64,000 nt of DNA from an uncultured Clostridia bacterium (GTDB lineage Bacteria; Bacillota; Peptococcia; Peptococcales; Peptococcaceae), in contig CALXSY010000010.1 of the NCBI GenBank assembly GCA_944391285.1, positions 1-64,000 on the forward strand, given 5' to 3'. Shown here piece after piece: positions 57,513-62,437 of the stretch. The notes below the pieces were generated by a model. It did not search any database. It was given only the letters and a program-made list of their open reading frames with translations, and was not told the DNA's origin. The translations under genes and the position numbers were made by a program. Positions within the stretch are counted from its first letter, which is position 1; each line of letters begins with the position of its first letter.

Positions 57513-57734
57513 ATGCCGATTGTAGTAGATTTGGATGTCATCATGGCTAAAAGAAAGATTTCTGCCGGAGAGCTGGCAAAAAAGGTTGGTATAACCCCGG
57601 CAAATCTTTCGATACTAAAAAATAATAAAGCTAAAGCGGTGAGGTTTTCCACCTTGGAAGCCTTGTGCGAGGCGCTGGATTGCCAGGTGGCGGATATCTT
57701 AACTTATGTAAAGGAGAACGAAGATGAAAATTAA
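57513..57734 (+). CDS. Small XRE/YozG-type regulator
   Basis: 73 aa, almost only HTH: VDLDVIMAKRKISAGELAKKVGITPANLSILKNNKAKAVRFSTLEALCEALDCQVADIL. This is the YozG family partner of DUF2975. AGGAGGACAAGCC precedes the ATG. It overlaps the start of the ABC binding-protein gene by 11 bases, so the importer is controlled with it. Confidence 0.9.
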   Translation: MPIVVDLDVIMAKRKISAGELAKKVGITPANLSILKNNKAKAVRFSTLEALCEALDCQVADILTYVKENEDEN

Positions 57735-58671
57735 ACTAACAGCAATAATAATGGCGGCAATGCTTTTTTTAAGTGCCTGCGGCTCTAACGGTGACGAAGA
57801 AAAAGTGAAAATCGGTTTATTAAGGATTGACGACAGTATTCCTTTTTATGTAGCAGAGCAAGAAGGCTTGTTTAAAGAAATGGGAGTAGAAGCAGAGCTT
57901 ATCTCCTTCAGCAGCTCTTCCGACCAGTCCTTGGCGATGGAAGCCGGTGAATTGGACATGGCGATGAATGATATGATCGTGCAGTGTTTGATGAAGAAAA
58001 ACGGCACCGATACCAAAGCCGTTGCCTTGGCATACGGCGCAGTGCCGGAGGAAGGCAGATTTTTAGTTGTAGCCGCACCACAAAGCGGCATCTACACTCC
58101 TCAAGATTTAAGCGGCAAAAATGTCGGCATTTCGACCAATACGATGATGGATTTTCTCTTTGAAAAATTTGAGAATATTTATGGACTGCCTTCCAGCGAG
58201 ATCAACAAAGTAAATATGCCCAATCTCTCTTTGCGCTTGGAGGCGGTATTGAGCGGCAGTGATTTGCAGGCGGCAATTTTGCCGGATCCCTTGGCGGCTT
58301 ATGCTGTGGAAAAGGGCTGTTCGGTAGTGATTGACGATACGGCATTGGGCGTAAATCTTTCCCAATCCGTAGTTTTAGCTACTGATGAATTTATAAACGC
58401 TAATGAAGAGCAGCTAAGCAAAATTTTGGCAGCTTATAACCAAGCTAAGGAATTATTAAATGAAAATCCCGAAAAATACCGTTCGCTGTGTTTGGAAATT
58501 GCTAATGTTCCGGAAGAGTTAAGCGCCAGCTATCCTTACCCTCACTATACTCCTGATGTATTACCCGCTGAGGAATATGTCGGACAAGTAGTGGACTGGC
58601 TTGTTTCCCGGGAGCTGATAAATGAAGAATATACTTATGAGGATTTAGTCTGGGGAGATAGTGTTGAGTAA
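57724..58671 (+). CDS. ABC transporter substrate-binding lipoprotein (NMT1/SsuA-like)
   Basis: 315 aa. Signal peptide with lipobox LSAC (Cys19). The two-lobed domain has VKIGLLRIDDSIPFYVAEQEGLFKEMGVEAELISFSSSSDQSLAMEAGELDMAMNDM, the hallmark of the NMT1/THI5/SsuA cluster that binds sulfonates, nitrate-like anions, taurine, riboflavin or thiamine precursors. LSGKNVGISTNTMMDFLFEKF is the second-lobe start. Ligand not deducible. AAAGGAGAACGAAG precedes the ATG inside the XRE gene. Confidence 0.9.
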   Translation: MKIKLTAIIMAAMLFLSACGSNGDEEKVKIGLLRIDDSIPFYVAEQEGLFKEMGVEAELISFSSSSDQSLAMEAGELDMAMNDMIVQCLMKKNGTDTKAVALAYGAVPEEGRFLVVAAPQSGIYTPQDLSGKNVGISTNTMMDFLFEKFENIYGLPSSEINKVNMPNLSLRLEAVLSGSDLQAAILPDPLAAYAVEKGCSVVIDDTALGVNLSQSVVLATDEFINANEEQLSKILAAYNQAKELLNENPEKYRSLCLEIANVPEELSASYPYPHYTPDVLPAEEYVGQVVDWLVSRELINEEYTYEDLVWGDSVE

Positions 58672-59422
58672 TTGCTTTGTTTTAGAAGATGTAAGGGTCG
58701 AGTATGAGCTTGATAAGAAAAATACCTTTGCCGCCATCGAAAAATTAAATTTAACTATCGCTAAAGGTGAGCGGGTGGCGTTAATCGGGGCTTCCGGCTG
58801 CGGCAAAAGCTCCTTATTAAAAATTTTAAGCGGCTTAAAAGCGCCTCAAAGCGGCAAAATCTATTATAATGATGAACCGCTGAAGGGCGTGCAGAAAAGC
58901 ATTGTTTTGATGAGGCAAAACACGTGTCTTTTGCCGTGGAAAAAGGTCGAAAAAAATATTGCCTTACCGCTGATTCTGCAAAAATGCCCTAAAAAAGAAG
59001 CCTTAGCCGAAGCCAAGGCGATGATGGAAAAAATGAATATTGCTAAAGAATGGGGCAAATATCCTTTGCAGCTTTCCGGCGGTCAGCAGCAAAGGGCAGC
59101 CTTGGCACGGGCATTATTGGTAGAGCCGCAGGTTTTGTTGCTGGACGAGCCTTTTTCCGCTTTAGATGCTTTTAATCGGGAAGCTATGCAGGATTTGCTT
59201 TGTGATGTTTGGCAAAAGCGGGCATTAACCTATGTGCTGGTTACCCACAGTATCGAAGAAGCAGTATATTTAGGCGAAAAAATCATTGTGATGACTAACG
59301 GCGGAAAGATTTATCAAACAGTGAAAAACGAGCTAAATTTCAATGAAAATTGCCGCACCGGTGATGAGTTTTATGCTGCCTGCCGCAGATTAAGAAAGAC
59401 TTTAGAGGAGGCGCAAGCATGA
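58664..59422 (+). CDS. ABC transporter ATP-binding protein, SsuB/TauB-like
   Basis: 252 aa. The frame opens at GTG 58661; TTG 58664 has better spacing after GGGGAG, so the start is uncertain. Walker A GASGCGKSS, Q-loop LMRQNTCLLPWKKVEKN, signature LSGGQQQRAALARAL, Walker B VLLLDEPFSALD and switch VTHS. The LPW after the Q-loop is typical of nitrate/sulfonate-type importers. Overlaps both neighbours. Confidence 0.92.
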   Translation: MSNCFVLEDVRVEYELDKKNTFAAIEKLNLTIAKGERVALIGASGCGKSSLLKILSGLKAPQSGKIYYNDEPLKGVQKSIVLMRQNTCLLPWKKVEKNIALPLILQKCPKKEALAEAKAMMEKMNIAKEWGKYPLQLSGGQQQRAALARALLVEPQVLLLDEPFSALDAFNREAMQDLLCDVWQKRALTYVLVTHSIEEAVYLGEKIIVMTNGGKIYQTVKNELNFNENCRTGDEFYAACRRLRKTLEEAQA

Positions 59423-60162
59423 AGCGAATAATTTTTAATGCCTGCTTAGCGACCGCACTTTTGCTTTTGCTCTGGCAAGTGAGCAGTATCTGCTTAAATA
59501 AAGCATTTTTGCCTTCTGTCGGTCAGACATTTGAGGTGATGGTCAGCGAATGGCAAAAGGGCAGTCTTTTAAATCAGACCATCATCAGCACCAAACGCAT
59601 CTTGAGCGGCTTATTTTTGGCAATAGTTTTAAGTATACCTTTAGGTCTGGCAATGGGGCGAATTAAAATCCTGGACGAAATCATCTCGCCGTTGATTTAT
59701 CTGCTGTATCCTTTGCCTAAGGTAGTGTTTCTGCCGATTATTGTCGTAATCATGGGCTTAGGCGATGCACCGAAAATATTTTTAATCGCTTTAGTGGTCT
59801 TTTTTCAGATTTTGGTCTCCAGCCGGGATGCGGCTAAAAATATTCCGGGCGAATATCTGGAAAATATGCGCTCCATGCATGCTAATTTAGGACAAAGGCT
59901 AAGGCATTTAATCCTTCCCTATTGCCTGAGCGATATTTTGACTGCCTTAAGGATAACCTTGGGCACCAGTATTGCCATTTTATTTTTTGCCGAAACCTTT
60001 GCTTCGGTGGACGGCTTAGGCTATTTTATCTTAAACGGGATGGAAAGCCGCAATTATCCTAAGATGTATGCCGGCATTTGTGCTATGGCAATATTGGGTT
60101 TAATGCTTTATGCGGTAATTGATGCCGCAGAGAGGTTTTTCTGCCGCTGGAAAAAATATTAA
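59419..60162 (+). CDS. ABC transporter permease, SsuC/TauC-like
   Basis: 247 aa with six helices. The EAA loop EYLENMRSMHANLGQRLRHLILPYCLSDILTALR and GISIAILFFAETFASVDGLGYFI-type segment are the SsuC/TauC family pattern. It overlaps the ATPase by four bases and its stop overlaps that of the convergent cwlD. Confidence 0.92.
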   Translation: MKRIIFNACLATALLLLLWQVSSICLNKAFLPSVGQTFEVMVSEWQKGSLLNQTIISTKRILSGLFLAIVLSIPLGLAMGRIKILDEIISPLIYLLYPLPKVVFLPIIVVIMGLGDAPKIFLIALVVFFQILVSSRDAAKNIPGEYLENMRSMHANLGQRLRHLILPYCLSDILTALRITLGTSIAILFFAETFASVDGLGYFILNGMESRNYPKMYAGICAMAILGLMLYAVIDAAERFFCRWKKY

Positions 60163-61011: not shown

Positions 61012-62391
61012 ATGGGAGACTATGAAAAAAATATTGCTCTGGAAACAAAAAAAGTTTTGGAGCAGGGATATTATTTTTTTGATAATAATAAAGTAGTTTT
61101 GCCTTTAACAGGAGAAATTTATTCTCGGGTAGAAATTATTTCGCCTCAAGTTTGCCAAGGGTGGCAGAAAAACGAAAAAGAGGTTTTTTCCGGCAGAATT
61201 CAAGGGGTGGGCAAGATCAAGGTGTTAAACCTTGACAGCTTCAGCGCTGTAAGAGAAGAAAAAATGCAGGGATGTCTTGTATTAAATTTTGCTGATTCCT
61301 TAGAATGGGGCGGCAATTTTTTGCAAGGCACGGTAGGGCAGGAGCAAAGCTTGTGCCGCAATTCCACCTTGTCTTTATCCTTAGGCTCTGCTAAAGCTCA
61401 GAAAATGTATGAGCATAATCGGGCTTTGCAAAATGAATTTGCTGTGGAATACATGCTTTTTACTCCTTATGTCGATATTATAAGAGACGGAGAGAATAAT
61501 TTTCAAAAGCATCCCTGGCGGTGCAGTGTTTTAAGCGCTCCGGCAATTGATTTAAGAAGGGTGAGAAGCACGGATATTGCTCAAGTTGAGCCGGTAATGC
61601 TGGAGAGAATCAGAAATATTTTAAGAACAGCCATTGCCTTTGGCTATGATGAATTGGTTTTAGGGGCATGGGGCTGCGGCTGTTTTAAGCATCAGGCAAA
61701 AGATGTAGCAGGCTATTTTGCTAAAGTTTTATGTGCGGAAAACTGGCAAAAATATTTTAAAAAGGTTGTTTTTGCCGTTTTGGATAATTCAGCGGAAAAA
61801 GAAAAATTAAAAGCCTTTCAGGCGGTATTTGCCGAAAATGAGCAGCTCGATTTGATGGAATCCATCATTAAAAGCAGCCATTTAGATTATTTTAAGCGCT
61901 ATCGGCAAAGACTAAACGAAATTGAGCATTTTGTGCAAGGTCACGAAAAGGATCATCCTTTGCGGGTGATTATGCTGGTAACTTTAATCGTTGATGAGCT
62001 GGATTTATCCGCTGAAGCATTGGAAACACTTTATAAGGCGGCAACCTTCCATGATGCCGGTCGAGTTAACGGCTTAAATGATCCGACTCATGGTGAATTG
62101 GGAGCCATATGGTATAATAAGCATTGCGAGCCGGATAAAGCGGTGGAGTTTTTGATTAAATATCATTCATTAGATGATGATATAGCAAAGAAAGATTTGG
62201 CTCAGCTGGATTTTGCAGACAAAGAGGAAATGTGGCTGTTGTACTGCATCTTAAAAGATGCCGACGGCTTGGATCGAGTGCGCTTTAAATATTACGGCAA
62301 CGGGGCATTGGACGAAAAATATTTGCGCTTAAAGCGGTCAAAAAAATTGTTAAATGTTGCCTATAAGCTTTTGGAAAGTGACTTAAAATAA
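61012..62391 (+). CDS. Fusion of PARG-like (TIGR02452/DUF2263) macrodomain with HD hydrolase domain
   Basis: 459 aa from the ATG at 61012, after AGGGAGGAATGATT. Residues about 1-260 follow the microbial PARG layout: VLNFADSLEWGGNFLQGTVGQEQSLCRNSTL, YMLFTPYVDIIRDG, VLSAPAIDLRR, LVLGAWGCGCFKHQAKDVAGYF. The usual GGG loop is GGN (100-102) and the usual QEE is QEQ (110-112), so the second, catalytic Glu is Gln. Residues about 290-459 are an HD domain with His315, HD (347-348), His360, His385 and Asp416/421. It may bind an ADP-ribose-like ligand and hydrolyse a phosphate. Substrate unknown; a fusion is rare in my experience. Confidence 0.8.
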   Translation: MGDYEKNIALETKKVLEQGYYFFDNNKVVLPLTGEIYSRVEIISPQVCQGWQKNEKEVFSGRIQGVGKIKVLNLDSFSAVREEKMQGCLVLNFADSLEWGGNFLQGTVGQEQSLCRNSTLSLSLGSAKAQKMYEHNRALQNEFAVEYMLFTPYVDIIRDGENNFQKHPWRCSVLSAPAIDLRRVRSTDIAQVEPVMLERIRNILRTAIAFGYDELVLGAWGCGCFKHQAKDVAGYFAKVLCAENWQKYFKKVVFAVLDNSAEKEKLKAFQAVFAENEQLDLMESIIKSSHLDYFKRYRQRLNEIEHFVQGHEKDHPLRVIMLVTLIVDELDLSAEALETLYKAATFHDAGRVNGLNDPTHGELGAIWYNKHCEPDKAVEFLIKYHSLDDDIAKKDLAQLDFADKEEMWLLYCILKDADGLDRVRFKYYGNGALDEKYLRLKRSKKLLNVAYKLLESDLK

Positions 62392-62405: not shown

Positions 62406-62437
62406 AGAGACAGCTTATTTAGGCTGTCTCTCTCTTT
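62406..62437 (+). terminator. Terminator of the macrodomain-HD gene
   Basis: AGAGACAGC/GCTGTCTCT with an 8-base loop, followed by CTCTTTAT. Confidence 0.8.

What the first reader, a model, noticed from the sequence alone, without database searches (positions are those of the whole stretch)
61012..62391. PARG-like macrodomain joined to an HD phosphohydrolase, with altered catalytic loop
The PARG-like half has GGN instead of GGG and QEQ instead of QEE, so the catalytic Glu is replaced by Gln, while the HD half keeps its metal ligands. It may be a binding module that presents an ADP-ribosylated or cyclic-nucleotide ligand to the HD enzyme, for NAD metabolism, defence or signalling.
Basis: partly seen in the sequence, partly recalled or inferred. 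Interest (0 to 1): 0.66.

Follow-up and report, generated by a model that had tools for sequence, protein, structure and literature searches.

The report
ADP-ribose-type domain fused to HD phosphohydrolase
A bacterial protein joins an ADP-ribose-recognising domain, altered at the residue that normally cuts, to a metal-dependent phosphohydrolase of a subfamily whose relatives are repeatedly fused to, or encoded beside, enzymes that attach ADP-ribose, which suggests an uncharacterised way of handling this chemical tag.

Summary
Window 61012-62391 (+) encodes one 459-aa protein: a bacterial-type PARG domain (TIGR02452, E 1.6e-46; AlphaFold model TM 0.90 to TcPARG) followed by an HD domain (PF01966, E 3e-8). 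The catalytic-loop change is real and rare: of 78 PARG loops gathered, 76 read QEE, one QEG, and only this one QEQ. GGN is not diagnostic; 16 of the 78 have another residue than Gly there. Mouse PARG E-to-Q at this site keeps residual activity, so 'inactive' is likely but unproven. The HD half has the full H...HD...H...H...D motif that can hold two metals. No other PARG-HD fusion turned up. The more informative result lies outside the finding: this HD subfamily is fused to, or encoded beside, ADP-ribosyltransferases of at least two Pfam families (DarT, ADPrib_exo_Tox) and a third, R-S-E ART-like family. In the HD tree the window protein groups with that third kind (moderate support); its nearest solitary relative lies downstream of two TIR genes. 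Best reading: the PARG-like half took the place of an ART, binds ADP-ribose or an ADP-ribosylated ligand, and serves an HD phosphohydrolase acting on an ADP-ribose-type substrate. Substrate and phenotype are untested.

The parts
61012..62391 (+). PARG-HD fusion gene, 459 aa (start ATG 61012, stop included)
   Evidence: single open frame, single copy in the genome
61030..61821 (+). PARG-like macrodomain (TIGR02452 / PF10021), residues 7-270
   Evidence: AlphaFold2 model and Foldseek to TcPARG TM 0.90 and DrPARG 0.85-0.89
61309..61350 (+). altered catalytic loop GGNFLQGTVGQEQS, residues 100-113; Q112 replaces the catalytic Glu, E111 kept
61672..61689 (+). GCGCFK (residues 221-226), equivalent of the GCGVFR diphosphate-binding loop of PARG; conserved
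   Evidence: DrPARG contacts in PMC6445106
61840..62388 (+). HD domain plus the helices leading into it (residues 277-459); Pfam HD core 314-422
61939..61956 (+). first HD ligand segment GHEKDH (H311, H315)
62047..62064 (+). FHDAGR: the HD motif itself, H347-D348
62089..62091 (+). H360, extra His for a second metal
   Evidence: motif rule in PMC8177086
62164..62166 (+). H385, extra His for a second metal
   Evidence: PMC8177086
62254..62286 (+). KDADGLDRVRF signature with the last metal-ligand Asp (D416 or D418) and subfamily marks D421, R422, R424
62406..62431 (+). terminator-like stem-loop after the gene, before spoIVB (reads as a terminator on the other strand too)
   Evidence: consensus scan, 3 found against 1.5 expected

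Best explanation
The protein is an ADP-ribose-linked two-domain enzyme. The PARG-like half keeps the macrodomain fold, the diphosphate-binding GCG loop and the first Glu of the loop, but lacks the second, catalytic Glu. It most likely binds ADP-ribose, or an ADP-ribosylated molecule, with little or no hydrolysis. The HD half is a probably dinuclear metal phosphohydrolase that cleaves a phosphate bond in an ADP-ribose-type substrate, for example the pyrophosphate of ADP-ribose, a cyclic ADP-ribose signal or an ADP-ribosyl conjugate. The same HD subfamily is otherwise often fused to, or encoded beside, ADP-ribosyltransferases, so the shared theme is 'HD next to something that makes or holds ADP-ribose'; here the making domain is replaced by a holding one. 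Shown by sequence or model: both folds, the Q at the catalytic position, the metal ligands, the ART-HD associations. Inferred: ADP-ribose binding, loss of hydrolysis, the HD substrate, the biological role.
For: Domain and fold matches. QEQ unique among 78 loops. DrPARG E112A abolishes PAR hydrolysis but leaves ADP-ribose affinity nearly unchanged (PMC6445106). Six-ligand H...HD...H...H...D motif, said to diagnose a dinuclear site as in the Ap4A hydrolase YqeK (PMC8177086). HD-subfamily partners: PF14487 DarT in L100 and L195 (E 1.9e-13, 3.7e-13) and PF03496 ADPrib_exo_Tox in L036 and L027 (E 1.8e-24, 1.1e-22), with L036's ART part also matching solved ADP-ribosyltransferases; an R-S-E motif family in 13 loci. 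Separate-gene versions: a PF03496 ORF beside the HD gene in L104 (E 5.9e-18); an R-S-E ORF near the HD gene on viral contig L197 (E 3.8e-13). Tree: the window HD groups with R-S-E ART-HD fusions, including those of its own family, support 92/84 and 89/71. Nearest solitary relative L025 (41%) is downstream of two TIR genes. Three large Bacilli plasmids carry both a PARG gene and an ART-HD gene.
Against: The fusion is known from one genome only, so there is no conservation test of Q112 or of the fusion itself. 27 of 72 positions conserved in other PARGs differ here, so the pocket may have a different ligand or none. Gln at this position kept residual PARG activity in mouse PARG (PMC3897571). No HD protein is shown to act on ADP-ribose in the papers read. 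About a third of the subfamily members gathered are solitary, and one relative (L055) joins the HD to GGDEF, a cyclic-nucleotide setting. hhalign of the small ART-like alignments gave no support, so only the DarT and PF03496 partners are firm ARTs.
Confidence: 0.45

Rival explanations
1. The PARG half is still a working, slower or respecialised ADP-ribosylhydrolase, and the HD half processes the released ADP-ribose further: a coupled eraser plus phosphatase, like the ADP-ribosylglycohydrolase-phosphatase couples proposed for bacterial anti-phage systems.
For: Mouse PARG E748Q and E749Q keep residual activity with a near-native loop (PMC3897571). ADP-ribosylglycohydrolase genes are often coupled to phosphatases, including an HD phosphatase (PMC9503650). 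The same genome has a SIR2-family gene beside a macrodomain gene, so ADP-ribosylated substrate may exist.
Against: The catalytic Glu is kept in 76 of 78 loops and its loss abolishes activity in DrPARG E112A. Other conserved positions have changed too.
Confidence: 0.27
2. The HD half is a phosphodiesterase or phosphatase for an ordinary nucleotide messenger, and the PARG-like half is a sensor that switches it in response to ADP-ribose or NAD breakdown.
For: A subfamily member is fused to a receiver-GGDEF protein (L055). Foldseek of the related ART-HD model finds HD-GYP, PDE and GppA folds.
Against: Within the subfamily the repeated partners are ARTs, not cyclases. The HD half has no GYP motif.
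Confidence: 0.15
3. A recent, lineage-specific chance fusion of a decaying PARG to a solitary HD enzyme; the PARG half has no function beyond folding.
For: One genome only; catalytic residue and 27 of 72 conserved positions changed; sister in the tree is a solitary HD.
Against: No stop or frameshift over 459 codons; the fold is modelled with the PARG core intact; the GCG loop and E111 are kept; the HD clade around it consists largely of fusions to ART-like domains.
Confidence: 0.1

Closest known systems
Bacterial-type poly(ADP-ribose) glycohydrolase (TIGR02452 / PF10021; TcPARG, DrPARG)
   Same: Fold (TM 0.90 to TcPARG), about 30% identity, GCG diphosphate loop, first Glu of QEE
   Different: Q instead of the catalytic Glu; S95 of DrPARG is D95 here; 27 of 72 conserved positions changed; C-terminal HD domain
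HD-domain hydrolases with the H...HD...H...H...D motif (for example YqeK Ap4A hydrolase)
   Same: All six metal-ligand positions present
   Different: Own subfamily with a KDADxLDRxRF signature; no significant sequence match in the PDB
ART-HD fusions of the same HD subfamily (named only 'HD domain-containing protein' in public plasmid records)
   Same: Homologous HD half at about 29-42% identity; the window HD nests among them in the tree
   Different: Partner is an ADP-ribosyltransferase or ART-like domain instead of a PARG-like domain
ADP-ribosylglycohydrolase-phosphatase couples (predicted anti-phage systems, PMC9503650)
   Same: ADP-ribose-processing domain coupled to a phosphatase, sometimes HD
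   Different: ADP-ribosylglycohydrolase fold, not PARG; no chaperone, Nudix/WYL or REase genes next to this gene
DarT-DarG and other ART-macrodomain toxin-antitoxin systems
   Same: An ADP-ribose writer paired with an ADP-ribose-handling domain
   Different: Here no ART of the R-S-E kind is found in the genome, and the second domain is an HD enzyme

Membership tests
TIGR02452 / microbial-type PARG | Profile score over the curated cut-off | tested here: met
   159 bits against 50; PF10021 74.2 against 23.5
TIGR02452 / microbial-type PARG | PARG macrodomain fold | tested here: met
   AlphaFold2 mean pLDDT 84; Foldseek to TcPARG E 1.2e-16, TM 0.90
TIGR02452 / microbial-type PARG | GGG-X6-8-QEE catalytic signature with intact second Glu | tested here: not met
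   GGN-X7-QEQ; unique among 78 loops
TIGR02452 / microbial-type PARG | PAR or ADP-ribosyl hydrolysis | not testable with these tools
   needs an assay
HD superfamily | Profile score over the cut-off and H...HD...D ligands | tested here: met
   34.3 bits against 22; H315, H347-D348, D416/D418
HD superfamily, dinuclear type | Two further His between HD and the last Asp | tested here: met
   H360 and H385, in 92 and 85 of 92 members; rule from PMC8177086
HD-GYP c-di-GMP phosphodiesterase | GYP triad and HH pair | tested here: not met
   No GYP in the HD half and a single His at 385
ART-HD fusion family | Homologous HD half | tested here: met
ART-HD fusion family | ART domain in the same protein | tested here: not met
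   N-terminal half is PARG-like; no R-S-E ART in the genome by profile A2 (a null result without a positive control)
Anti-phage defence system | Match to known defence models or a defence neighbourhood | tested here: not met
   No PADLOC match; neighbours are cwlD-like and spoIVB genes and an ABC transporter

The most novel reading that the evidence does not exclude
This HD subfamily is an uncharacterised class of ADP-ribose enzyme: a dinuclear phosphohydrolase that cleaves ADP-ribosyl conjugates or ADP-ribose signals, deployed beside several unrelated ART families as a built-in limiter or processor. In the window protein a non-hydrolysing PARG-like domain recruits the ADP-ribosylated target to it.
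Probability: 0.25. Interest if true: 0.8.

Novelty: new variant of a known kind. Interest (0 to 1): 0.55.

Why it matters
Known ADP-ribose erasers are macrodomain/PARG, ADP-ribosylglycohydrolase and NADAR enzymes. A metal-dependent HD subfamily that recurs beside DarT, ADPrib_exo_Tox and R-S-E ART-like domains, and once beside a PARG-like domain, points to a further ADP-ribose-linked activity that a simple assay can settle. The window protein is a natural PARG domain with Gln at the catalytic position, tied to its putative partner enzyme.

Tried and rejected
GGN as a sign of inactivation: rejected, the third position is not Gly in 16 of 78 loops and nearly all of those keep QEE. More PARG-HD fusions: none among 100 relatives, 398 genomes of the phylum, 63 of another order, the phage and plasmid collections, or the IMG/VR PARG loci; the pattern scan of genome contigs with the whole protein found none, and the HD scan kept only the best 80 of 233, so more may exist. 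Defence-system and phage-family matches to the window protein: none of note. Profile searches of the PDB with the ART-like alignments: no usable hit; the L105 model gave KptA at E 0.09, probability 0.90, and a viral WWE-domain protein at E 0.12, suggestive only. hhalign between small ART-like alignments: no support. The C-terminal partner families of 20 and 9 members (A8, A9) look ART-like by motif only and are left out of the firm count. A first full-length alignment (A4) put PARG sequences on the HD half and was discarded; A7 was used, chosen by a script that tried subsets until known motifs lined up. A Pfam call with wrong coordinates failed and was redone.

Full report
Observation. The window encodes one continuous 459-aa protein at 61012-62391 (+). 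Residues 7-270 match bacterial-type PARG (TIGR02452, 159 bits, cut-off 50; PF10021, 74.2 bits, cut-off 23.5) and residues 314-422 match the HD domain (PF01966, 34.3 bits, cut-off 22). Solved relatives of the first half are DrPARG and TcPARG. An AlphaFold2 model (mean pLDDT 84) puts the first half on TcPARG with TM 0.90. The gene is single copy in its 1.70-Mb genome.

The catalytic loop. The loop reads GGNFLQGTVGQEQ. By coincidence the numbering equals that of DrPARG: Q110, E111, Q112. In 11 cellular PARGs the third position is always Glu. Among 78 distinct loops from Bacillota genomes and IMG/VR contigs, 76 have QEE, one QEG and only this protein QEQ. GGN is not diagnostic: 16 of 78 have another residue than Gly there, among them L016, which has GGN with QEE. 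In DrPARG, E112A abolishes hydrolysis but leaves ADP-ribose affinity nearly unchanged, and E111 and the GCG loop contact the ligand (PMC6445106); both are kept here. In mouse PARG the Gln mutants keep residual activity with a near-native loop while Asn mutants are dead (PMC3897571). So this half most likely binds ADP-ribose and hydrolyses poorly or not at all, but that is inference. Twenty-seven of 72 positions conserved in other PARGs differ, including D95 at the place of DrPARG S95, so the ligand may differ too.

The HD half. All six positions of the H...HD...H...H...D motif are present (H315, H347-D348, H360, H385, D416 or D418) and are conserved across 92 subfamily members. A review states that this pattern diagnoses a dinuclear site, as in the Ap4A hydrolase YqeK (PMC8177086). 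The subfamily has its own KDADxLDRxRF signature and no significant PDB sequence match. No GYP motif is present.

Partners of this HD subfamily. A scan of GTDB genomes with an HD alignment found 233 relatives and kept 80. With genome and viral hits, 95 non-identical HD ORFs were sorted by their flanking segments. Firm ART partners are PF14487 DarT (L100, its near-copy L103, and L195) and PF03496 ADPrib_exo_Tox (L027 and L036 by Pfam; L050 and L064 by homology). L036's ART region also matches solved ADP-ribosyltransferases. A third N-terminal family (13 loci) has the R-S-E pattern YRG...SW(S/T)...ExE, with R194, S208-W209 and E250 nearly invariant. Its AlphaFold model (pLDDT 90) finds KptA and a viral WWE-domain protein only weakly, so ART membership there rests mainly on motif. 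Two C-terminal partner families (20 and 9 members) are ART-like by motif alone. The association also occurs as separate genes: a PF03496 ORF directly before the HD gene in L104, and an R-S-E ORF near the HD gene on viral contig L197. About a third of the ORFs are solitary HDs. Among the loci gathered, a PARG-like partner occurs only in the window protein.

Place in the tree. In a maximum-likelihood tree of 92 HD domains the window HD falls in a group of seven with five R-S-E ART-HD fusions, two of them from its own taxonomic family, plus the solitary HD L025 (support 92/84; inner fork 89/71). Branches are long and support is moderate. L025 lies downstream of two TIR-domain genes; TIR domains are known to make ADP-ribose-type signals from NAD (established knowledge). 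The ART-HD fusions of the same family sit in mobile-element-like settings with LPD28 and a methyltransferase-like gene. Three large Bacilli plasmids carry both a PARG gene and an ART-HD gene (CP116888, CP139434, CP009417); both may simply mark phage-like megaplasmids.

Context of the window gene. It stands between a cwlD-like gene (opposite strand) and a spoIVB gene, with a terminator-like stem-loop after it, so it looks like a lone gene rather than part of a defence or toxin-antitoxin operon; no PADLOC model matches. Elsewhere the genome has a SIR2-family gene (SirTM-like by inspection) beside a macrodomain gene, so ADP-ribosylation chemistry may be present.

Mechanism and verdict. The best-supported reading is that the PARG-like half holds ADP-ribose or an ADP-ribosylated ligand and the HD half cleaves a phosphate bond in an ADP-ribose-type substrate. 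A published survey proposes an analogous coupling of ADP-ribosylglycohydrolases with phosphatases, HD included (PMC9503650). The rivals are a still-active eraser coupled to a phosphatase, an ADP-ribose-sensing messenger phosphodiesterase, and a decaying chance fusion. The fusion itself is a singleton, which caps confidence. The recurrent ART-HD association is the more general and testable result; searches of the held literature found no description of it, though most subscription papers are not held.

Noticed in passing
G000:C19, locus L202 51-1674 (-): SIR2-family gene (SirTM-like by inspection, PF02146 E 3.6e-6) directly beside a macrodomain gene (PF01661 E 5.9e-37): a likely reversible ADP-ribosylation pair in the same genome.
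   Followed up: partly
L025 20-8975 (+), Oscillospiraceae MAG: Nearest solitary HD relative lies in a cluster with two TIR-domain proteins (one TIR-methyltransferase), a RyR-domain protein, an FHA protein and a radical SAM protein.
   Followed up: partly
L197 3680-6153 (+), viral contig: Subfamily HD gene and, about 400 bases after its end, an ORF matching the R-S-E ART-like profile (E 3.8e-13), as separate genes.
   Followed up: partly
L104 1106-5672 (+): Large ORF ending in a PF03496 ADP-ribosyltransferase domain directly followed by a subfamily HD gene: a split form of the L036-type fusion.
   Followed up: partly
L055 3900-5504 (+): Receiver-GGDEF-HD protein whose HD belongs to the same subfamily, hinting at a cyclic-dinucleotide link in one branch.
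   Followed up: no
L035, L040, L054 and 17 others, C-terminal about 290 aa (alignment A8); L080, L085 and 7 others (A9): Two families without a significant Pfam match, fused C-terminally to this HD, with ART-like motifs (H...S...E and H...Y...EWVS); identity unproven.
   Followed up: partly
Plasmids CP116888, CP139434, CP009417: Megaplasmids carrying both a TIGR02452 PARG gene and an ART-HD gene at distant positions; in CP139434 the ART-HD gene sits beside ligA (NAD-dependent DNA ligase).
   Followed up: partly
L154, viral contig, ORF from 2824 (+): PARG with QEG and GGA instead of QEE and GGG: another candidate non-catalytic PARG, standing alone.
   Followed up: no
window 57724-60162 (+): NMT1/THI5-like substrate-binding lipoprotein, ATPase and permease genes of one ABC transporter directly before the cwlD-like gene.
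   Followed up: no
L033 4122-5528 (+), Catenibacillus scindens DSM 106146: ART-HD gene whose ART part is split over two frames (87 aa and 381 aa ORFs), so possibly frameshifted in this strain.
   Followed up: no
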